Shown here: positions 26,552 to 63,899 of the stretch, one piece after another
How positions within the stretch are numbered: position 1 is the stretch's first letter
Layout of the letters: every line of letters begins with the position of its first letter
IMG/VR virus record: IMGVR_UViG_3300021440_000014
Location: 62,001-126,000 of that record
DNA length: 64,000 bases
DNA from: a virus
Strand: one strand, 5' to 3'
Notes under the pieces: generated by a model
Databases searched by the model: none
Told to the model about the DNA's origin: nothing
The model's input: the letters and a program-made list of their open reading frames with translations, nothing else
Translations under genes and position numbers: made by a program

Positions 26552-26628
26552 TGGCCTGTAGCTCAATTGGTTAGAGCAGAGCACTCATAATGCTTTGGTT
26601 CTCGGTTCAAGTCCGAGCAGGCCAACCA
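26552..26628 (+). tRNA. tRNA with CAT anticodon (Met or Ile2)
   Basis: Acceptor TGGCCTG pairs with CAGGCCA; the D-arm is GCTC/GAGC with GG in the loop; the anticodon arm GAGCA-CTCATAA-TGCTT reads CAT; the T-arm CTCGG-TTCAAGT-CCGAG is canonical. CCA is encoded. The acceptor starts with a paired T1-A72, so it is not a typical initiator. It could also be a tRNA-Ile whose C34 is modified to lysidine. Confidence 0.93.
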
Positions 26629-26676: not shown

Positions 26677-26753
26677 GCTTCCGTAATTCAATTGGATAGA
26701 AATTTTGCCTTCTAAGCAAAAAGTTATAGGTTCAAATCCTATCGGAAGCACCA
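26677..26753 (+). tRNA. tRNA-Arg (TCT)
   Basis: Acceptor GCTTCCG pairs with CGGAAGC, A73 and CCA are encoded, the anticodon arm TTTGC-CTTCTAA-GCAAA reads TCT, and the T-arm is ATAGG-TTCAAAT-CCTAT. It is preceded by its own TTGACTTCTTAG ... TAACAT promoter. It reads AGA, a frequent codon in AT-rich phage DNA. Confidence 0.93.
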
Positions 26754-27139: not shown

Positions 27140-27694
27140 CCAATATGTAAAAAATGCAACAACAAGTTTCCGTGTAAAATTACCTTAAATGGTAAAGAAA
27201 AGTTTTTACATACTAGATCTTACTGTTTAGATTGCTCTCCATTAGGTAAAAATCTAGGCTATGATTTAAGAAAAGAATCGAACGATAAGAAATATATTGA
27301 TTTATTCCAAAAAGAAGGAGTAATAAAATGTAGAATATGCGAAAGATCTTATCTAAGGAAAAAGAAAAACAATTTAATATGTTCTACTTGTAGGAATTCT
27401 TATTTTAGATTTAATCAAAGAAATAAAGCGATAGATTCATTAGGCGGGAAATGCTCTAAATGCGACTGCAAAGATAAAGAAGTATTACAGTTCCACCATA
27501 CAGATCCAAATCAAAAAGATTTTAATTTATCTGGCAACTGGTCACAAAAAGAATGGTTGACTTTAGAAAAAGAAATAGTAAAATGTATTTTATTATGTGC
27601 TAACTGCCATTCTAAAGAACATCGAAAAGACTTAACAAAAATCATTGAATTTTATGGGCAAGTGGCGAAGTTGGATGAAACGCAGCAGACTTAA
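27137..27694 (+). CDS. HNH homing-type endonuclease
   Basis: The 185-residue product has N-terminal zinc knuckles (CKKCNNKF, CLDC, CRIC, CSTC) and a C-terminal HNH core: LQFHHTDPNQKDFNL, then LLCANCHSKEHR. Free-standing HNH enzymes nick DNA and spread at intergenic sites, often next to tRNA genes. Its 3' end runs 39 bases into tRNA-Leu, so the last 13 residues are encoded by the tRNA's 5' part. DNA is very AT-rich compared with neighbours, a sign of recent arrival. Confidence 0.85.
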   Translation: MPICKKCNNKFPCKITLNGKEKFLHTRSYCLDCSPLGKNLGYDLRKESNDKKYIDLFQKEGVIKCRICERSYLRKKKNNLICSTCRNSYFRFNQRNKAIDSLGGKCSKCDCKDKEVLQFHHTDPNQKDFNLSGNWSQKEWLTLEKEIVKCILLCANCHSKEHRKDLTKIIEFYGQVAKLDETQQT

Positions 27695-27744
27695 AATCTG
27701 CTACATAAGAAACACCGTGGGTTCGATCCCCACCTTGCCTACCA
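27656..27744 (+). tRNA. tRNA-Leu (TAA)
   Basis: Class II tRNA with acceptor GGGCAAG/CTTGCCT (one G-T pair), D-arm GCG/CGC, anticodon arm GCAGA-CTTAAAA-TCTGC, a 16-base variable arm, T-arm GTGGG-TTCGATC-CCCAC, and encoded CCA. It overlaps the end of the HNH gene. Confidence 0.93.
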
Positions 27745-27755
27745 TTTTAATATTT

Positions 27756-27870
27756 ACCCGTGCTTATGCTAACCGAGAAGACTTTAGGGTCAACAAGTGT
27801 GAGAGAGCACAACTGAACACAAGTAGGTTCCTATCGAAAGGAAACGAGTAGAAGGACTCTCGCAGCGGGT
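27756..27870 (+). ncRNA. X-family structured RNA, copy X1
   Basis: A 115-base element is closed by ACCCG/CGGGT, with an inner GAGAG/CTCTC stem. It shares with the minus-strand element at 51941-52063 the blocks CCCGTGC, AAGTGTGAGAGAGCA and GACTCTC followed by GCGGG. No coding frame fits. It lies between tRNA-Leu and Y1. Function is unknown; the conserved closing stems suggest a stable RNA. Confidence 0.65.
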
Positions 27871-27883
27871 AACTCAATTTAGT

Positions 27884-28004
27884 GGATACGTGGCGGAAAA
27901 TAGACGCAGCATAGTGTATAACTTGCACGGATAAGTAACCTATACTATGACAGAGGGAGAACGTGTATGAACCCTCATGCAAGTGTCAAACCTTGCCGTA
28001 TCCA
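27884..28004 (+). ncRNA. Y-family tRNA-like RNA, copy Y1
   Basis: The ends form a perfect tRNA-type acceptor: GGATACG with CGTATCC, then A, with no CCA. A leucine-type D-arm GCG/CGC and a T-arm GCAAG/CTTGC are present, but the D-loop lacks the usual GG pair and the T-loop is 8 bases. The anticodon arm is an extended stem, CATAGTGTA/TATACTATG, with a 22-base loop, followed by a GAGGG/CCCTC variable arm. Not a translation-competent tRNA by normal rules. Confidence 0.7.
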
Positions 28005-28046
28005 TATTCTATTTGACATTTAGTAAAAATATCATATTCTTTAGAT

Positions 28047-28311: not shown

Positions 28312-28387
28312 GCGCTTATAGCTCAATTGGTAGAGCACGACACTTTTAATGTTGTGGTTTCGGGTTCGAGTCCCGATGGGCGCACCA
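28312..28387 (+). tRNA. tRNA-Lys (TTT)
   Basis: Acceptor GCGCTTA/TGGGCGC includes two G-T pairs; D-arm GCTC/GAGC; anticodon arm CGACA-CTTTTAA-TGTTG; T-arm TCGGG-TTCGAGT-CCCGA; CCA encoded. It has its own TTGACATTGATTAAAAATAA promoter. Confidence 0.93.
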
Positions 28388-31556: not shown

Positions 31557-31635
31557 GCGCCATTAGCTCATCGTAGGTTAGAGCAGTCTCTTTATAAGGG
31601 TCAGGTGGATCGTTCAAGCCGATCATGGCGTACCA
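31557..31635 (+). tRNA. tRNA-Ile (TAT)
   Basis: Acceptor GCGCCAT/ATGGCGT, D-arm GCTC/GAGC, anticodon loop TTTATAA giving TAT, T-arm GATCG-TTCAAGC-CGATC, CCA encoded. The anticodon stem GTCTC/GGGTC has a T-T mismatch and the D-loop is long, so it may be somewhat degenerate. A strong terminator follows. Confidence 0.85.
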
Positions 31636-44869: not shown

Positions 44870-45574
44870 TTAAAGATTTTTGTATTCGTAATAGGATGCT
44901 ACATTGTTCTGCACTTTTGCGTAGTGCATTAAATGGGTGTCAATACATAAACTATTACCTTTTAAGGTGGGTATTCTTTGTGGAGTGTGGCCGAAAATCT
45001 GCTTCGCATTATCATTTGGAATGAATTCTCTCAAAAAATCACACCAAATAATGCCCCCAAACGGAATCTGCCCGCCGCGAGAGTAGCCTGCCCTGAAAAA
45101 ATAATGAGATTTGTTTTTCTTGAGCAACCTAAAAGCATAATCGCTTTCTTTATTCAGAAAAACATCAATATCTTCGTTATTCTCAGGAAAATAGCTAGAA
45201 TGAAGTCCAGCATGAGTAAAAAGAAAACCTTGCTCAAAATGAAAGAACTTCAATTTGCTCCACTCTTTTTCTGTTAGCTCTTCCTGAACGGCTTTGTTTT
45301 TACTTTCCGTGAAACCCGTGCATCTTGTATATGGGTTATTTGGAAATGCATAGCAAACATCATGGTTTCCCCACAAATGGATTCTATTCTCCTTATTTAA
45401 GCTTTCTTTAAGCCATTTTGCGGTCTTCCTTGCGTCAATATGAGAGTCGCCGAAATCATCGAAGTAATCTCCAAGGAAAATAACCTTGTCCGCACCAGCA
45501 TTCTTGATAATCGTTTCGGCTCTATCTATCTTATTATGAATGTCTGGTATAATCAGTAAAACTTCAGTTCTCAT
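44870..45574 (-). CDS. Calcineurin-like metallophosphoesterase
   Basis: This 234-residue protein has the full metal-site set: IPDIHN, FLGDYFDDFGD, LWGNHD, THAGLH and IFGHTP. It probably hydrolyses phosphoester bonds in a nucleotide or phosphoprotein. The closest general group is the PPP/ApaH-like phosphatases. Promoter TTGAGGTATTTGAAAATAAA. Confidence 0.8.
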   Translation of the reverse strand: MRTEVLLIIPDIHNKIDRAETIIKNAGADKVIFLGDYFDDFGDSHIDARKTAKWLKESLNKENRIHLWGNHDVCYAFPNNPYTRCTGFTESKNKAVQEELTEKEWSKLKFFHFEQGFLFTHAGLHSSYFPENNEDIDVFLNKESDYAFRLLKKNKSHYFFRAGYSRGGQIPFGGIIWCDFLREFIPNDNAKQIFGHTPQRIPTLKGNSLCIDTHLMHYAKVQNNVASYYEYKNL

Positions 45575-46734: not shown

Positions 46735-47442
46735 ATGAGCAGACCTTGGACAAATGAGGATTCAGAAAGTCTAAAAAAACTTTACGGAACAATGCCCCTT
46801 AAAGAATTAGCTTCTATTTTAAATAGACATGGAACATATTTATGTATCAAAGCTAAAAAACTTGGCATCCAATCTAGTAAATCAAAACTAACAATGGAAC
46901 AGCTATTTCTTAAGAAAAGCAATCAAAGAAGATGTTATAAATGTAAACAAATAATGCCTTTCATAAATGAATTTTTTTACGCTTCTAAAAGATGCTGTCG
47001 TAAATGTGAAAGAAAAATAGCAATTATTAATTTTTACAACTTAAAAAATAATCCAACTCTTCCTAAAGTAATGATGTCAAGGTTATATGCAAGTAAGTCT
47101 CGGGCAAGATCTAAAAAAATAGATTTTAATCTTGACATAAGCTATCTTCTTGTTTTATGGACAAAGCAAGAAGGAAAATGTTTTTATTCAAAACTTCCAA
47201 TGAAAATAAAAATAGAATCTCGCTATGAAAACACTGAAGTTCTTTCTATTGATAGAATCGATCCTGACAAAGGATACATTAAAGGCAACATTGTTCTTTG
47301 CTGTGATGCAGTTAATACAATGAAGAATAATATGTCTTTGGATAAATTCAAGACTTTTATAAAAATAATTAACGAAAATTTTCAAGAAATGGCAAATAAG
47401 CCTTTAAGCACAACTCATTTGCAAAATTCAGATCAAATCTAG
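46735..47442 (+). CDS. HNH homing-type endonuclease with N-terminal HTH
   Basis: This 235-residue protein starts with a Myb/SANT-like helix-turn-helix (PWTNEDSESLKKLYGTMPLK), then zinc knuckles (CYKCKQIM, CCRKC). The C-terminus is an HNH-like core, VLSIDRIDPDKGYIKGNIVL. It has its own promoter (TTGAAT ... TATAATAC) and overlaps the 3' end of the opposing nucleotidyltransferase gene by 74 bases, as mobile endonuclease genes often do. Confidence 0.75.
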   Translation: MSRPWTNEDSESLKKLYGTMPLKELASILNRHGTYLCIKAKKLGIQSSKSKLTMEQLFLKKSNQRRCYKCKQIMPFINEFFYASKRCCRKCERKIAIINFYNLKNNPTLPKVMMSRLYASKSRARSKKIDFNLDISYLLVLWTKQEGKCFYSKLPMKIKIESRYENTEVLSIDRIDPDKGYIKGNIVLCCDAVNTMKNNMSLDKFKTFIKIINENFQEMANKPLSTTHLQNSDQI

Positions 47443-48094
47443 TAATAAATGCTTTTTTCTCGTAAGCTTTCTTAAGTTTTATTTCGAATTCGTTTATCAT
47501 TTTTATTAAATCTTCAATCTTAAAATCTTCAGGGGCAAACTTTATTGATCGAAGTAATGAATAAATGCTTCTATCTTTATTTTTAATATTTGTTGGGAAA
47601 ATTCCATATTCAAAATAGAACTGCCCCGCCCAAGAAAGCCTTATTAATTGGGTCACGTTTTTGGGAGAAAATTGATATTTGAGTATTTGTTCATGCCTTT
47701 TACATCCTGTTTTACTTTTTCTTTCTCCAAAGGCCAGTCTTTTTTCTCCCTGCATATAACCAAGAAGACATTTAAATAATCTTTCTGAATCTATAAGTTT
47801 GTGTCTATTTAATTGAGTCTCTTTCCAGATTTCACTTATTTCAATCCAATCCTCATTAAAAAGCAATTCAAAACTTTGAGTATTGCCCTGCCTAAGAAGA
47901 CTTAGGGTATGCCTGAATTCAGTATAGAGTTGATCGTCGTCTTTATCTTGCTTTAAGGCATGTTCGTTCTTTCCTAAGCCGATGATATCGTTGATATTAT
48001 CATTTAGGAATACTCCACGGTAGTCTACGTCGCTTTCTGGGCCATCTAGTCCATACATTTTAGATCCTCCAAGACACTTACAGATAATTTTCAT
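47369..48094 (-). CDS. Polymerase-beta-fold nucleotidyltransferase (RlaP-like)
   Basis: This 241-residue protein has the signature GSKMYGLDGPESDVDYRG, the GS-x(n)-DxD nucleotidyltransferase motif, near residue 10. A C-terminal helical part includes GCKRHEQILKY. Relatives (RlaP-type) are linked to RNA repair ligases. With the RNA ligase at 59131 it could act in RNA end repair. Its 3' end overlaps the HNH gene on the other strand. Confidence 0.7.
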   Translation of the reverse strand: MKIICKCLGGSKMYGLDGPESDVDYRGVFLNDNINDIIGLGKNEHALKQDKDDDQLYTEFRHTLSLLRQGNTQSFELLFNEDWIEISEIWKETQLNRHKLIDSERLFKCLLGYMQGEKRLAFGERKSKTGCKRHEQILKYQFSPKNVTQLIRLSWAGQFYFEYGIFPTNIKNKDRSIYSLLRSIKFAPEDFKIEDLIKMINEFEIKLKKAYEKKAFITRFDLNFANELCLKAYLPFLENFR

Positions 48095-55370: not shown

Positions 55371-56297
55371 TTACTTAGCTGGAGTCTCGTTAAGCTCCAA
55401 GTATGGCCACCTGCCCTTTTCCTCTTCGCTAACTTCGCTCCACTTTTTATGATTACCGGGAGTTTCCTTAATCTCGTCAAGCTTTGAGAAAAATTGCTTT
55501 CGGAAAGAGGATAGCTGATCTACAATTTTCTTAGTCTTATAAGTCTTACTAACGAGTAGACATTGCGCGGAAACCGTGCTTACAGAGTTTGGACTCATTT
55601 TATTGTAAGTAATCGAAGTGGGTTTGTAAACCTGCTTCAAACGATCTACTACTCCGCTAGGGAAACTAAGCAGCTTATAGTCGCGACCAAGCTCTTCAAG
55701 ATTAGGCAGTGGCGCGGCACCGACAAATACGGCAGCATCAATAACCCCGCTATTAAGCGCATTCATTACATCTGCACCCTTCTCAAATTGTGTCACGTCA
55801 TAGCCAATTTGAGATTGAAGCCTAATAACCTGTGCTGTTACATAGCTTCCTCCTGCTGCACCGACCTTCATTCCTTGAAGAGAAGAAACGTCATTGATAA
55901 CAATAGGCTTCGCGCCGAAACCACCAAATCCACCAACAGCCCTCTTTGAAGTGCTCAAAGCTAGAAAATGAACATCTTCGCTAAAAAGAGCCAAGAGAGT
56001 CTTAAATCGGCTAAGATCCTCTGTCTGACCTCGAAAGTAGATCACATCAGAATGCATGAAAGCTGCATAAACTCGATTATTTACCAAAAGATCCAAATTT
56101 TCAATAGCTCCGTGACTTGGAACTTCCTTGAATACAATTCCAGAATCCGTAGTGACTGCTGAAATCTGCTTCAAGAACTGCTGATAAGTTCCAGAGGAAG
56201 ACCCTGCCGCTACAAGAAACTCAGTCTGAGCGTGTGTATTTGCGCCGATAAACAGCAATGTGATAAGTGCGATTATGTTTTTCATTTTGTTTTTCAT
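55371..56297 (-). CDS. TAXI-family TRAP-type substrate-binding protein
   Basis: This 308-residue protein has a signal peptide (IIALITLLFIGANTHA) and a mature start LVAAGSSSGTYQQFLKQI, the hallmark of TAXI periplasmic binding proteins. VGAAGGSYVTAQVI and ALNSGVIDAAVFVGAAP follow the family's two-lobe pattern. TAXI proteins feed TRAP transporters with small acids or amino acids. No TRAP permease is seen in the window, so it may work with a host permease or act differently. Cellular-type binding proteins are very unusual in phages. Confidence 0.75.
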   Translation of the reverse strand: MKNKMKNIIALITLLFIGANTHAQTEFLVAAGSSSGTYQQFLKQISAVTTDSGIVFKEVPSHGAIENLDLLVNNRVYAAFMHSDVIYFRGQTEDLSRFKTLLALFSEDVHFLALSTSKRAVGGFGGFGAKPIVINDVSSLQGMKVGAAGGSYVTAQVIRLQSQIGYDVTQFEKGADVMNALNSGVIDAAVFVGAAPLPNLEELGRDYKLLSFPSGVVDRLKQVYKPTSITYNKMSPNSVSTVSAQCLLVSKTYKTKKIVDQLSSFRKQFFSKLDEIKETPGNHKKWSEVSEEEKGRWPYLELNETPAK

Positions 56298-59130: not shown

Positions 59131-60126
59131 TTAATTTTCAATAGCAAAAGGCTCAGACAATATTTTAAAGCTCATTCTGCCACCTAAAACCTCGCTTTGT
59201 TGTTCTTTACAAGGTCTGCATACTATACCCTCTGCGCTGACGCCCTTTAAATATTCTTGCTCGTTAGCCATATTAATAAGCTGCTCTAAGCTGAAATTAA
59301 ATTTTCCTGCCCAAACTACAGGGACAAATGGTAAATTATTTTCAACACAAAATTCCATGAAAACATCAAAATCCGCATATTTACGATGCTTTATGCTAAA
59401 AAAGTTAAACAATGCAAGACTTATTTTTTCGGCTTTCATTGGGTTCTTTTGGATTCCCGGTCCATAGACTTCACCTTGCACAGCATAGTCTCCGGGGAAT
59501 TTAGCTCTAAAAGCTCTCAAAGCTTCTTCTATTTTATATTCTCTAGCAACTTTCCAAAAACCATTCCCCTCTTCTTCTTTTAATTCTAAATTTCTGGAGC
59601 AAACTCCGAATTTTTCGTCTTTAAGATAGAAGGTTCCGCTACTTCCATCCATTTTTAATGTAATACAAGATTCCTTGCCTTGGAGTTCTTTTATTACATC
59701 TGGATAGGTTCTACCATTCAATTCGTCTGTCCTCTTTAAAAAAGATGGGAAACTACCTTCTACTTTTCCGGCTAATTGTGCGGGAACCGGCTTTTCATAT
59801 TTCTGAATACCAGTTTGCTCCGTAACGTCCATTCCTTCGACAATACTATCTTTGTCCAAGAGAATATTGATAGGTAACGCAAGTCCTTCGGAATACTGCC
59901 CCTTAAGGCGAATGGTTTTTAATCTAAAATTCTTATTTCTAAGAAATTCATATTCTGGTTTTTGTGGCAAAATAGTATCGGAATAGTGATAAACACATAA
60001 ATCGTTTTCCTGAAACTCATTTTTCTTGACGACTACCTTATAACCAAGGATATCCGCAACCAAAATGTTATCTGCCCCTTCAATAGGGGAAAGCTTTTTT
60101 ATTCTTTCTATACTAGCTAATTTCAT
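59131..60126 (-). CDS. RNA ligase (T4 Rnl2 / Deinococcus-type)
   Basis: This 331-residue protein has an N-terminal OB-like domain (IKKLSPIEGADNILVADI) and a ligase core with the catalytic motif I LKMDGSSG (Lys nucleotidylation site), motif III QGEVYG, motif IV EGIVCRP and motif V SFKILS. That order matches Rnl2- and DraRnl-type RNA ligases, which seal nicks in RNA duplexes. In T4 such enzymes repair cleaved tRNAs. Here it could repair or join tRNA halves, including the permuted one. Confidence 0.85.
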   Translation of the reverse strand: MKLASIERIKKLSPIEGADNILVADILGYKVVVKKNEFQENDLCVYHYSDTILPQKPEYEFLRNKNFRLKTIRLKGQYSEGLALPINILLDKDSIVEGMDVTEQTGIQKYEKPVPAQLAGKVEGSFPSFLKRTDELNGRTYPDVIKELQGKESCITLKMDGSSGTFYLKDEKFGVCSRNLELKEEEGNGFWKVAREYKIEEALRAFRAKFPGDYAVQGEVYGPGIQKNPMKAEKISLALFNFFSIKHRKYADFDVFMEFCVENNLPFVPVVWAGKFNFSLEQLINMANEQEYLKGVSAEGIVCRPCKEQQSEVLGGRMSFKILSEPFAIEN

Positions 60127-60170
60127 ATATTATAATTATCGTTTTGATTAGTGAAATGTCAATTTAAAAT

Positions 60171-60890
60171 CTATTTTAATTGAAAATATGCATACCCTAC
60201 ATTTTCATATTCTTCAAATTTTAATAGCCTATGACTTGTGAACTTATCCCTAATCCAACTTAGATTTACAATAGGTTTATGATATTCTATAACTATATAC
60301 TTACATTTACTTAAAAAATATGCTTCTAGAGGATCTGATAAAAGATCATACTCTGCCCCTTCTATATCTATTTTCAAAAGATCGCATGGTGTTGACATGA
60401 AAGTTGCCCATGCATCGGAGATTCTAATTTTTTCTTCTCCTAATTCCGAGCCGTAAACTATTTTAGACTCTGGAGAATGACTGTTTTCTATAAATTTACC
60501 TCCGCTATATCCAACTAAACCTTTTAAAACATATACATTATCGGTGGCAGAATTAAGCTTTAAATTTGATAGACACTTTTTTATAGCCGTATCGCTTGCG
60601 TCTACAGCCATTCCTGAAATTTTATTCTTAATGTTATTACAAAGCCATAATAAAAATAAACCTTTATTACATCCTACGTCATATACATAATTAAAATCCC
60701 ATTTAAGAATTATATCTGAATAGCCTAATCCATTCTTAATTCCATCTTTATTTGATTTCCAATCTTCTAAATCATAATTAAGATATTTTATTTTACCATA
60801 ACTATTCAATTTAGGATATGTAAAACAATATTTGTTTATTTTCTTTACAATTTTTTTGTACAAGGAAGTTTTTTTGAATTTATTAATCAT
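60171..60890 (-). CDS. FkbM-type methyltransferase
   Basis: This 239-residue protein has the SAM site YDVGCNKGLFLLW and the family motif LLKIDIEGAEYDL. FkbM enzymes methylate sugars or small molecules at hydroxyl groups. It is paired with a radical SAM gene by a 4-base overlap, so both probably act on one product. Confidence 0.75.
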   Translation of the reverse strand: MINKFKKTSLYKKIVKKINKYCFTYPKLNSYGKIKYLNYDLEDWKSNKDGIKNGLGYSDIILKWDFNYVYDVGCNKGLFLLWLCNNIKNKISGMAVDASDTAIKKCLSNLKLNSATDNVYVLKGLVGYSGGKFIENSHSPESKIVYGSELGEEKIRISDAWATFMSTPCDLLKIDIEGAEYDLLSDPLEAYFLSKCKYIVIEYHKPIVNLSWIRDKFTSHRLLKFEEYENVGYAYFQLK

Positions 60891-61699
60891 TTTGCTCCTG
60901 TGCAGTTTTTACATATCGAATAAGGTGTGCCGCCATTCCTAAGCTCTTTTCTAGCCTTTTTCCATTTTTTATTCCCTCTCCAAATATCTAATATAGGCTC
61001 ATGGATAACATTTCCTTCTATGTTTTCATGTTTGTAATCGCAGCAGCAAATAGATATATCTCCGTTAATTCGTATCGGTAAAACTCTTTTTGGGCTATTA
61101 CAGTATCCAAGCTTAGGATTATTAACTGCTACTACTCCAGCAATGTTCATTAATTCCTTCTTATCTATCTTTGAATAAGTGAAAATATATGGATATTTAT
61201 CACAAATAAGCTTTATTCTTTCTTCCCATCCCGGTTTAAGCGGTGGATGCTGAGTAATAGCAACCCTTTCAACTCCAGATTTTACCAATCTGTCAGCCAG
61301 TTCCATCGTCAAAAGATCTCCATTCGTAAAAATAATAGGCATTGACTTCGGAAGTTCTCTTTTTGTTTTTTCAATAAAAAAACATATCTCTGGATTAAGA
61401 AGAGGCTCGTTTAAATAGTGATATCCAACTGGACCAGCCCAATTGATTTGTTTTAGTCTACTGATTATTATATTAAAAATACCAATACTTATAAATTCTG
61501 GTTTTATCGGCGCAACGCTATTTGGGCAGTAATAGCAAGCCCTATTACATTGCGTGGAAGTCTCTATCCAGATAGCTTGAGGAAAGCGAAAATCTCGATA
61601 TTTTATAAAATTATATACTGAAATATATAGTAATTTTAATTTAAAAATTAGACTAAAGTGATTGAATCTCCTTAAGAAAGAGAGAGCTATATTTCTCAT
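60887..61699 (-). CDS. Radical SAM / SPASM protein
   Basis: This 270-residue protein has the radical SAM motif CNRACYYC (CxxxCxxC) near residue 50 and a C-terminal SPASM-like Cys set (ISICCCDYKHEN ... CKNC). SPASM enzymes often modify peptides. Its coupling with the FkbM gene suggests a small biosynthetic or modification unit. Confidence 0.75.
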   Translation of the reverse strand: MRNIALSFLRRFNHFSLIFKLKLLYISVYNFIKYRDFRFPQAIWIETSTQCNRACYYCPNSVAPIKPEFISIGIFNIIISRLKQINWAGPVGYHYLNEPLLNPEICFFIEKTKRELPKSMPIIFTNGDLLTMELADRLVKSGVERVAITQHPPLKPGWEERIKLICDKYPYIFTYSKIDKKELMNIAGVVAVNNPKLGYCNSPKRVLPIRINGDISICCCDYKHENIEGNVIHEPILDIWRGNKKWKKARKELRNGGTPYSICKNCTGAK

Positions 61700-61703
61700 T
61701 TTA

Positions 61704-61889
61704 TTAAACAGATGATTTGTCCTCTAAATCTGCCTTCAAAAACGCAACAGCGTAAATTAAAGGTATAAATATATAAAATTTATCTGTTTTGGCCATTAAA
61801 TAAAAAGAAAATGAACAAAATAAAATATCATATAAATTAATAGTTTTTCTGGCTAAAAAATTGTTTACTTTTGTCAAAACTGTTTTCAT
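61704..61889 (-). CDS. Small membrane protein
   Basis: This 61-residue protein has two hydrophobic stretches (LYDILFCSFSFYLMA and FYIFIPLIYAVAFL). It lies 4 bases upstream of the radical SAM gene, so it is operonic. It could be a peptide substrate or an anchor. Confidence 0.5.
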   Translation of the reverse strand: MKTVLTKVNNFLARKTINLYDILFCSFSFYLMAKTDKFYIFIPLIYAVAFLKADLEDKSSV

Positions 61890-61922
61890 ATATTCATATT
61901 ATATCCTTTTTATAAAAAGACA

Positions 61923-61957
61923 ATAAAAAAACCCAGAAATCTTTCGACTTCTGGGCT
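61923..61957 (-). terminator. Rho-independent terminator
   Basis: CCCAGAAGTC and GATTTCTGGG pair, followed on the minus strand by TTTTTTTATTG. It ends the holin-like gene. Confidence 0.8.
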
Positions 61958-61976
61958 TGGCTATAGACTCCGCAAA

Positions 61977-62201
61977 TTACTTAGGTTGTTCTTCTTTTTC
62001 GCCGAACCTCTGGACAGTTTTACCGGCAACAGCCACGCCAAACATGGTTATAACACTTTCTGGCACGGGCTGCAAAGCTAGAGACTTAACTGATAGATAA
62101 ATCCAAGGAACAAGAATACCAAAAGCCCAAGCTATTAAAATTAACCTAGAACTACTTAGTCCACCGCTATTATCTTGAAAGAATTCTAATAATTTATTCA
62201 T
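61977..62201 (-). CDS. Holin-like membrane protein
   Basis: I chose the ATG at 62201 (MNKLLEFFQDNSGGLSSSRL). Two hydrophobic segments (LILIAWAFGILVPWIYL and VITMFGVAVAG) and a charged end (FGEKEEQPK) fit a phage holin. GTGTAAATCATAATATG precedes the start, matching the late motif. It would let endolysin reach the cell wall. Confidence 0.65.
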   Translation of the reverse strand: MNKLLEFFQDNSGGLSSSRLILIAWAFGILVPWIYLSVKSLALQPVPESVITMFGVAVAGKTVQRFGEKEEQPK

Positions 62202-62268
62202 ATTATGATTTACACATAATATGGGCATTTTTTACCACTTTCTATCTTTTGAAGATAGATGTCAGCCA

Positions 62269-63108
62269 TTAGCCTAGTTTATTAATGATATCCATATAAT
62301 CGCAGTCAAATAGTATTAAAAACCCGCTTTGATGAATGAATTTTACTCCGTCTAAATTTTTACATACATTAAAATCAATTAATGGGTTTTTTCTGGTAAG
62401 TCTATATTTACCATCTATTCTAGTATTTAAAGCTAAAGTAATATCAACTCCGTTTTTCTTTTCAAACTCAGAAGCGGGAATTGAATGTGTAGCCTCTACT
62501 TTTAAAGAAGTATAATCTGCAATAGTTAATCCATTCGTCAATTTAATAATTTTAGCCTTTTCATCTACTTCTTCTTTGTAAATTAAATATTCTTGATAGG
62601 AGTCTACTATAAAATCACCAATTGATGTCATTATACTCCCCAAATTGCTGGTTCTTTCTACTTCTGTGTATCCAGAGAATATATCTATCATTGCTTTTTC
62701 CACGGGAGAAAATACAAAAGGAATAGATTCGTTTGGGCATTTTAAAAAATTAGCTAATTTTTCAGGACCGCAATGATCGTAAATTTCAGTAGCCTTAATC
62801 CAAGGAGTAGCATTATAATTTCTCATTCCTAGATAATCCAATAAAAGAGTAAAGGCACATTGTTCCCCTCCTTTAATTTGATGGTGATCAAAATTAAGAA
62901 GATCCTCAGAATGTATTTTGCCAAAATCGCAAATTATACAATTTGGATCATTAAGCTCTTCGTCTGTCGGCCAAGTCTTTCTTTGAATCTTATCAACATT
63001 TGACAATGATAAAATCAAACAAGCACAAAGGAAATCATCTAAATGAGCATACCCGTCATGAACTATAGCCTTGGTTACTCGATCTAAATTTGGAATTAAT
63101 TTTTTCAT
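62269..63108 (-). CDS. MYG1-like (DHH superfamily) nuclease
   Basis: This 279-residue protein has IVHDGYAHLDDFLCACLILS, then CIICDFGKI and LNFDHHQIKGG, the order of MYG1/UPF0160 proteins. Eukaryotic MYG1 is a 3'-5' RNA exonuclease. It neighbours a nucleotidyltransferase gene and lies 2 kb from an RNA ligase, so a shared RNA-processing role is plausible. Confidence 0.7.
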   Translation of the reverse strand: MKKLIPNLDRVTKAIVHDGYAHLDDFLCACLILSLSNVDKIQRKTWPTDEELNDPNCIICDFGKIHSEDLLNFDHHQIKGGEQCAFTLLLDYLGMRNYNATPWIKATEIYDHCGPEKLANFLKCPNESIPFVFSPVEKAMIDIFSGYTEVERTSNLGSIMTSIGDFIVDSYQEYLIYKEEVDEKAKIIKLTNGLTIADYTSLKVEATHSIPASEFEKKNGVDITLALNTRIDGKYRLTRKNPLIDFNVCKNLDGVKFIHQSGFLILFDCDYMDIINKLG

Positions 63109-63112
63109 ATTT

Positions 63113-63256
63113 TTAATTGCAATTTATATTATTACAAATACCCCTACCCCTAGAAGTATAATTAAGGCGACCGTTGCATTTATAACAAAATCCAAAGAAA
63201 GCCCAAATTTTTCTCTTGTAGTAAATTCTTTTATATTCTAATTTTTGCCAGTTCAC
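63113..63256 (-). CDS. Small zinc-ribbon protein with GTG start
   Basis: From GTG 63256 to TAA 63113 the frame encodes 47 residues with CYKCNGRLNY and CNNINC, a plausible zinc site. It starts two bases after the preceding stop. The non-ATG start makes it less certain. Confidence 0.45.
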   Translation of the reverse strand: MNWQKLEYKRIYYKRKIWAFFGFCYKCNGRLNYTSRGRGICNNINCN

Positions 63257-63260
63257 AAGC

Positions 63261-63899
63261 TTAATCTATATATTTGTTAGAGTTTTCGGACACTTTTTCT
63301 GGATCTATTCCTAGCAAAAATTGAGTTAAACAACCATTGCAAGCGTAGTAACCTTGATTCGCGTATTTAAACATTCTTCTAAGGCTTGCGACCGGATAAG
63401 TAATTTTATTGACAACTATTCTTTTGTTAGCAATATCCCATAGCGCGAAATCTGAACAGTAAAATTCCTCGCCATCTGTTGCTAGTTGACAAAGTGTAAA
63501 ATCGAAAGAATCCAGCAGCGATTCAACTTTATCGTAATATTGAATACTTATTAATTGATAAATAATACCTTCATAAAGGATACTTCCATCTTCCGCTAAA
63601 ATATCAACAACGAGTTTAAGATTGAACTCATTTTTAGTTTCTGACTTTATCTTAATATTCTTATCAGATTTAATTCCTACATAAAATTCATCGAACTTCT
63701 CTTTAGATCTGAAGAAAAAATCAAAATCTGAATCCATTTTAGCACCAGTAATCATACGTCTGAGTGCTCCTCCCGCTAACCAACCATATTCTTTAATTTC
63801 TGGAGTATAAGCCGTCATTACATCATTAAACAGATTAAATCCTTTTGTAGCTGTATTTACCCTTGTTTGTATAAAATTGCCTAATTTAAATGTTTGCAT
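63261..63899 (-). CDS. Nucleotidyltransferase-fold protein, CCA-enzyme-like
   Basis: This 212-residue protein has WLAGGALRRMITGAKMDSDF followed by DFFF, the G-G and DxD motifs of class II CCA-adding enzymes and poly(A) polymerases. The C-terminal RNA-binding domains of a full CCA enzyme are missing, so it may be a minimal or specialised nucleotidyltransferase. The Y tRNA-like RNAs lack CCA, a possible link. Confidence 0.65.
   Translation of the reverse strand: MQTFKLGNFIQTRVNTATKGFNLFNDVMTAYTPEIKEYGWLAGGALRRMITGAKMDSDFDFFFRSKEKFDEFYVGIKSDKNIKIKSETKNEFNLKLVVDILAEDGSILYEGIIYQLISIQYYDKVESLLDSFDFTLCQLATDGEEFYCSDFALWDIANKRIVVNKITYPVASLRRMFKYANQGYYACNGCLTQFLLGIDPEKVSENSNKYID

What the first reader, a model, noticed from the sequence alone, without database searches (positions are those of the whole stretch)
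59131..63899. RNA repair or tRNA maturation toolkit
Seen: RNA ligase (59131), MYG1-like nuclease (62269), CCA-enzyme-like nucleotidyltransferase (63261) and a second, RlaP-like nucleotidyltransferase (47369). Known: RNA ligases and end-processing enzymes restore tRNAs cut by host defence nucleases. Inference: here they may also cut, trim, ligate and extend the permuted and tRNA-like RNAs.
Basis: partly seen in the sequence, partly recalled or inferred. Interest (0 to 1): 0.75.

Follow-up and report, generated by a model that had tools for sequence, protein, structure and literature searches.

The report
Phage RNA-repair genes, wider than reported
A large phage carries enzymes that probably mend RNAs, above all tRNAs, cut by its bacterial host's defences, a known kind of phage kit whose end-cleaning partners lie just outside the region first described.

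Summary
The four genes are real. The ligase at 59131-60126 is a full-length NgrRnl-type RNA ligase with its catalytic motifs. 47369-48094 is a RlaP NTase. 63261-63899 is a minimal head+neck relative of CCA-adding enzymes (AlphaFold pLDDT 82; best PDB matches all CCA/A-adding or PAP, Z 14.3), without the body and tail domains. 62269-63108 has MYG1 DHH motifs in its N-terminal half only and no phage relative found.

They are not one operon. Gene neighbourhoods in 159 viral loci show the ligase's recurrent partners to be a cREC cyclic-phosphate domain and a calcineurin phosphoesterase. Both are in this phage, at 65.3 kb and 75.3 kb in window-equivalent coordinates, beyond the window end. A Ro60-like DUF2828-vWA protein lies further on. 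Among NTase-bearing phages, those with an RNA ligase have many more tRNAs (p=0.0007); the NTase family itself tracks neither ligase nor tRNAs.

So an RNA-repair kit of a known kind is supported. Action on the 'permuted tRNAs' is not shown: those two elements look more like YrlA-type Y RNAs (basal stem plus tRNA-like module), possible ligands of the Ro-like protein, than tRNA genes. Verdict: partly supported.

The parts
59131..60126 (-). ATP-dependent RNA ligase, NgrRnl type: N-terminal OB domain plus C-terminal nucleotidyltransferase domain; motif I KMDG (K158), motif IV EGIV, motif V SFK
63261..63899 (-). Minimal class-II tRNA-nucleotidyltransferase-like protein (head + neck): GG43-44, D58xD60, FDF at 132-134, P..S..R..KY...GY; lacks body and tail
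62269..63108 (-). MYG1-like DHH phosphoesterase: HDGYAHLDD, CDFG, DHHQ motifs; only the N-terminal half resembles MYG1
   Evidence: sequence; no phage, plasmid or genome relative found
47369..48094 (-). RlaP-family Pol-beta nucleotidyltransferase (relative of T4-like nrdC.11)
44870..45574 (-). Calcineurin-like phosphoesterase (PHROG NinI-like; weak hit to a PHROG named RNA ligase); possible end-healing enzyme
54268..54420 (-). Permuted tRNA-like module (T-arm, acceptor 3' strand with ACCA, 12-nt linker, acceptor 5' strand, D-arm; core 54305-54383) enclosed by a 5'/3' basal stem; candidate YrlA-like Y RNA
26552..26628 (+). tRNA-Met(CAT)
26677..26753 (+). tRNA-Arg(TCT)
27656..27744 (+). tRNA-Leu(TAA)
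28312..28387 (+). tRNA-Lys(TTT)
31557..31635 (+). tRNA-Ile(TAT) by ARAGORN only

Best explanation
The phage carries a dispersed RNA-repair kit that reverses cuts made in tRNAs (the host's and its own 15) by host anticodon nucleases. Proposed order: a cut leaves a 2',3'-cyclic phosphate. The cREC protein and a calcineurin-like phosphoesterase (both just downstream of the window), perhaps with the phrog_335 phosphatase next to the NTase, clean the 3' end. RlaP (and possibly the minimal CCA-like NTase) restores lost nucleotides. The NgrRnl-type ligase seals 3'-OH to 5'-phosphate. Shown here: the protein families, intact catalytic motifs, the conserved neighbourhood of cREC, phosphoesterase and ligase, and the association of RNA ligase with tRNA-rich phages. 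Inferred: biochemical activities, substrates, the order of steps, and the 5'-kinase, which was not found. The MYG1-like protein is not needed for this scheme; by homology it would be a 3'-5' RNA trimming enzyme, but it may act elsewhere.
For: Ligase is full length with RNA-ligase motifs and closest to a solved RNA ligase; the phage has a separate ATP-dependent DNA ligase. cREC (PF20274, 6e-21, G000:127260-127637) and phosphoesterase (PF12850, G000:137277-137855) homologues flank the ligase in 26 and 20 of 80 viral loci, 45 of 46 on the same strand, against 2 and 0 of 79 loci around the NTase; with ligases grouped at 70% identity, 10 and 10 of 38 groups against 2 and 0 of 53. In NTase-bearing records tRNA number follows the presence of an RNA ligase (10 with, 0-31 tRNAs; 14 without, 0-3; Mann-Whitney p=0.0007). 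All 7 records with RlaP hold an RNA ligase and at least 13 tRNAs. The same scheme, including cREC linked to RNA ligases, was proposed for jumbo phages (PMC7824862).
Against: No polynucleotide kinase was recognised, although an ATP-grasp ligase needs a 5'-phosphate; not every small ORF was scanned. The genes are scattered (RlaP at G000:109369 to phosphoesterase at G000:137855, about 28 kb; the Ro-like gene is 14 kb further). RlaP is absent from all 23 ligase-scan records. Neighbourhood counts are partly shared ancestry: at 50-60% grouping the cREC excess is not significant (p=0.34 and 0.09). No activity was tested.
Confidence: 0.6

Rival explanations
1. A Ro/Y-RNA-type RNA quality-control system coupled to the ligase. 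The DUF2828-vWA protein (Ro60-like architecture) binds two phage YrlA-like RNAs (permuted tRNA-like module on a basal stem) and presents damaged RNA to repair or decay enzymes, as in bacterial rsr-yrlBA-rtcBA operons, with the NgrRnl-type ligase in place of RtcB.
For: DUF2828 9.8e-35 plus DUF7788 4e-52 with a weak vWA match in one 526-aa protein, PHROG 'RNA-binding protein' 1.5e-138. All 10 records with DUF2828 also hold an RNA ligase (one match below the curated cut-off) and at least 5 tRNAs, and in G004 and G006 it lies directly next to the ligase. Two permuted tRNA-like elements, both with complementary 5' and 3' flanks, as described for YrlA. The rsr-Y RNA-rtcBA RNA-repair operon is established (PMC7790460).
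Against: No TROVE domain by Pfam; no PDB sequence match; Rfam reported no Y RNA in the two stretches searched at E up to 1; the basal stems of the two elements share no evident sequence motif; no binding data.
Confidence: 0.3
2. One reading: the enzymes cut, trim, ligate and extend permuted tRNA precursors into working tRNAs.
For: Two strict permuted tRNA-like elements (window 54305-54383 and G000:147291-147357), no chance hit in 6.4 Mb of random sequence. The second encodes no CCA, so CCA addition would be needed. An RNA ligase and two NTases are present.
Against: No plausible anticodon loop with U33 could be written for the second element; flanks form a stem as in Y RNAs; a strict scan found none in about 1.9 Mb of other viral loci, and the model's hits in other ligase-bearing records lie on boundaries of tandem normal tRNAs; a normal tRNA-Gly(tcc) is also present.
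Confidence: 0.1
3. The NTase and MYG1-like proteins are unrelated accessory genes: the NTase modifies another acceptor (for instance as a toxin-like or DNA-linked NTase) and the DHH protein degrades nanoRNA or cyclic-oligonucleotide signals of host defence.
For: NTase family occurs in ligase-free, tRNA-poor phages and beside RecT/SSB/resolvase in a small Streptococcus phage; it lacks the domains by which CCA enzymes hold tRNA. DHH phosphoesterases in jumbo phages have been proposed to counter cyclic-nucleotide signalling (PMC7824862).
Against: The NTase's closest solved folds are all tRNA CCA/A-adding enzymes or PAP, far above other NTases (Z 14.3 against about 5 for Pol-beta and toxin NTases). 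MYG1 proteins are 3'-5' RNA exonucleases (PMC10089162).
Confidence: 0.4

Closest known systems
Jumbo-phage RNA-repair systems (Iyer et al. 2021, PMC7824862)
   Same: ATP-grasp RNA ligase, RlaP, cREC, calcineurin phosphoesterase, phage tRNAs, Ro-like protein
   Different: Here in a 172-kb record with an NgrRnl-type ligase; a truncated CCA-like NTase and a MYG1-like protein are extra; no kinase found
Naegleria gruberi RNA ligase (NgrRnl, PDB 5cot)
   Same: Full-length alignment, OB-fold first and nucleotidyltransferase domain second, same motifs
   Different: Viral member, activity untested
Class II CCA-adding enzymes (PDB 3h3a, 5hc9; E. coli PAP 3aql)
   Same: Head and neck fold, DxD plus third Asp, GG motif
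   Different: Phage protein ends after the neck; body and tail domains absent
MYG1 exonuclease (PF03690)
   Same: N-terminal DHH catalytic motifs
   Different: C-terminal half not recognisable; no relatives found in phages
Salmonella rsr-yrlBA-rtcBA RNA-repair operon
   Same: Ro-like protein, tRNA-like Y RNA and RNA ligase in one genome
   Different: DUF2828 instead of TROVE, ATP-dependent ligase instead of RtcB, genes dispersed

Membership tests
NgrRnl-type ATP-dependent RNA ligase | Motif I KxDG lysine and motifs IV and V in an NTase domain | tested here: met
   K158-M-DG, E299G300xV, F320K321 invariant in A5; PF09414 3e-23
NgrRnl-type ATP-dependent RNA ligase | N-terminal OB domain, full-length match to NgrRnl | tested here: met
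   PF21189 9e-26; 5cot 7e-44 over residues 2-324
NgrRnl-type ATP-dependent RNA ligase | RNA-sealing activity | not testable with these tools
   -
RlaP | PF10127 match with GS...SDxD catalytic signature | tested here: met
   8.4e-8, over cut-off; GGSKMYGLDGPESDVD at the N terminus
RlaP | Association with RNA ligases | tested here: met
   7 of 7 RlaP records hold a PF09414 ligase
CCA-adding enzyme (class II) | Head and neck domains with three catalytic Asp | tested here: met
   D58, D60, D133 invariant in 49 sequences; Z 14.3 to 3h3a residues 2-205
CCA-adding enzyme (class II) | Body and tail domains that hold the tRNA | tested here: not met
   212-aa protein, model aligned to the first about 200 of 366-425 residues
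CCA-adding enzyme (class II) | Adds CCA to tRNA | not testable with these tools
   -
MYG1 (PF03690) | Match over the curated cut-off with DHH motifs | tested here: met
   28.1 bits against 22.1
MYG1 (PF03690) | Match along the whole family profile | tested here: not met
   profile positions 3-113 of 318 only
Bacterial YrlA Y RNA (54268-54420) | 5'/3' basal stem plus tRNA-like D, T and acceptor arms | tested here: met
   definition in PMC8394870. The unconstrained fold prefers another pairing for the D-arm (-45.5 against -39.1 kcal/mol with the cloverleaf enforced)
Bacterial YrlA Y RNA (54268-54420) | Match to an Rfam Y-RNA model | tested here: inconclusive
   no Y-RNA match at E up to 1 in 40000-64000; whether such a model is in the library was not checked
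Ro60/TROVE protein (G000:152237-153817) | TROVE domain PF05731 | tested here: not met
   no match at E up to 1; DUF2828 + vWA instead

The most novel reading that the evidence does not exclude
A phage-borne Ro-like RNP system: the DUF2828-vWA protein binds two phage-made YrlA-like RNAs built from permuted tRNA modules and steers damaged tRNAs to a ligase, cREC and phosphoesterase repair line, with the minimal CCA-head NTase and RlaP rebuilding ends.
Probability: 0.25. Interest if true: 0.75.

Novelty: new member of a known kind. Interest (0 to 1): 0.5.

Why it matters
If true, it gives one compact, testable phage system in which end healing, nucleotide restoration and sealing come together with tRNA-like RNAs and a Ro-like protein. 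That would let the poorly understood link between Ro/Y RNAs and RNA repair be tested in a phage. It also points to the minimal CCA-head NTase, a widespread phage family of unknown function, as a target for biochemistry.

Tried and rejected
Single-protein scans of viral contigs with each of the four window proteins gave no relatives; alignments were needed. MYG1-like: no relatives in phages, plasmids or genome contigs, 0 of 48 other viral records; AlphaFold without alignment gave pLDDT 31 and was not used. TROVE search negative. PhoH as control query failed, so NTase loci served as the comparison set. A single-linkage grouping at 60% merged most ligases and removed the significance of the linkage; greedy grouping at several thresholds is reported as well. 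Model R1 hits in G053 and G049 were rejected as boundaries of tandem tRNAs (compare with 129). A loose permuted-tRNA scan gave chance hits in shuffles and was replaced by a strict one. Considered and rejected: permuted tmRNA, because a full D-arm is present and no tag frame was evident. Radical-SAM and FkbM-type methyltransferase genes inside the interval were considered as tRNA-modifying; the only hint is a weak PHROG tRNA-methyltransferase match (1e-3), and the Pfam matches are FkbM and SPASM. The Burroughs and Aravind 2016 paper was not held.

Full report
Setting. The window is bases 62001-126000 of a 172,010-base viral record, with 5 tRNAs by ARAGORN in the window and 10 more elsewhere in the record. 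It has DNA polymerase, tail, terminase, ribonucleotide reductase and its own ATP-dependent DNA ligase: a large tailed phage.

The observation. Each of the four named genes is present as written. The ligase is the firmest: an OB domain followed by an RNA ligase domain, a full-length match to Naegleria RNA ligase (7e-44; 5e-109 for the family profile), and invariant motifs across viral relatives. RlaP is supported by PF10127 and PHROG 388. The MYG1 call rests on the N-terminal 120 residues only, although HDGYAHLDD, CDFG and DHHQ read as DHH-superfamily catalytic motifs.

The NTase. It has no Pfam match. Relatives in phages share GG, DxD, FDF and P..S..R..KY...GY, and three Asp are invariant in 49 sequences. 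The AlphaFold model (pLDDT 82) matches class II CCA-adding and A-adding enzymes and E. coli PAP at the top of the list (Foldseek 1.5e-6; VIA Z 14.3 over 178 residues, against about 5 for unrelated NTases). It covers head and neck only; the body and tail that hold tRNA are missing, so it cannot be filed as a CCA-adding enzyme. 'CCA-enzyme-like' is right; 'adds CCA' is not shown.

Neighbourhoods. A ligase alignment drew 80 loci from more than 570 viral relatives; an NTase alignment drew 79. Searching all proteins of this phage against them showed the ligase's recurrent neighbours: cREC in 26 of 80 and a calcineurin phosphoesterase in 20 of 80, often in the order cREC, phosphoesterase, ligase on one strand, against 2 and 0 of 79 around the NTase (Fisher p=4e-7 and 5e-7). 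Corrected for relatedness by grouping ligases, the excess stays for both at 70% identity and above, but for cREC not at 50-60%. In this phage the same proteins are at G000:127260-127637 and 137277-137855 (window-equivalent 65260 and 75277), on the same strand as the ligase. The NTase is near a ligase of this type only in a few loci (L010, L029, L182/L183).

Record-level co-occurrence. In 24 records found through the NTase, the 10 with a PF09414 RNA ligase (one below the curated cut-off) have 0-31 tRNAs, the 14 without have 0-3 (p=0.0007). All 7 RlaP records hold a ligase and 13 or more tRNAs. All 10 DUF2828 records hold a ligase and 5 or more tRNAs. MYG1 was found in this phage alone. Against a strict tRNA link: four ligase-bearing records (G031, G032, G037, G048) have none, one of them with a close relative of this ligase and with cREC; such phages would be mending host RNAs. 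Records may be fragments, and they were not chosen at random.

Mechanism. Known chemistry (PMC3400036, PMC7824862): anticodon nucleases leave 2',3'-cyclic phosphate and 5'-OH; healing enzymes prepare the ends; ATP-dependent ligases seal. The phage has candidates for 3' healing (cREC, two calcineurin phosphoesterases, a phrog_335 phosphatase beside the NTase), for nucleotide restoration (RlaP, NTase) and for sealing. A 5'-kinase was not recognised. The MYG1-like protein would fit as a 3'-5' trimmer by homology, but nothing links it to the ligase.

The tRNA-like RNAs. A strict scan finds two permuted tRNA-like elements in the record, window 54305-54383 and G000:147291-147357, both minus strand, and none in 6.4 Mb of random sequence. 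Both have complementary flanks, giving a basal stem plus tRNA-like module; the first folds far better than shuffles (z -3.8), the second does not (z -1.2 for a stretch that leaves out part of the flanking stem). This is the described architecture of bacterial YrlA Y RNA (PMC8394870). The record also encodes a DUF2828-vWA protein, 526 aa, with the repeat-plus-vWA layout that I recall for Ro60 (recalled, not tested), though no TROVE domain. I therefore prefer a Ro/Y RNA reading of these elements over permuted tRNA genes needing ligation. This is inference.

Verdict. Genes confirmed; the RNA-repair reading is well supported and of a known kind; the four-gene toolkit as drawn is partly wrong in membership, since cREC and a phosphoesterase belong and MYG1 and the NTase are unproven; action on permuted RNAs is open.

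Noticed in passing
window 54268-54420 (-) and L004:1255-1400 (-) (G000:147255-147400): Two permuted tRNA-like elements with complementary flanks, candidate YrlA-like Y RNAs; the second has a 3-nt acceptor loop and no encoded CCA.
   Followed up: partly
L004:6237-7817 (-) (G000:152237-153817): DUF2828 + DUF7788 vWA protein (PHROG RNA-binding), Ro60-like candidate; directly next to an RNA ligase in jumbo-phage records G004 and G006.
   Followed up: partly
window 27752-27876 (+) / 51942-52064 (-) and 27880-28008 (+) / 51694-51842 (-): Two pairs of paralogous structured RNAs; the second pair has a tRNA-Leu-like D-arm (GTGGCGGAA..TAGACGC) and a long closing stem (z -3.3 and -2.7).
   Followed up: partly
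window 51410-51530 (-) and about 51535-51690 (-): Further long tRNA-like stretches with T-arms and paired acceptor ends but large inserts (first: z -2.25).
   Followed up: no
window 60171-61699 (-): FkbM-type methyltransferase and radical-SAM/SPASM gene pair between ligase and MYG1-like gene; likely surface or peptide modification, not tRNA.
   Followed up: no
L003:77-568 (-) (G000:126077-126568): phrog_335 phosphatase next to the NTase; homologues also lie near the NTase in L012, L036, L043 and L080 and near the ligase in L143 and L165.
   Followed up: partly
window 55371-56297 (-): NMT1-like/TAXI-type periplasmic binding protein with signal peptide in a phage, unusual auxiliary gene.
   Followed up: no
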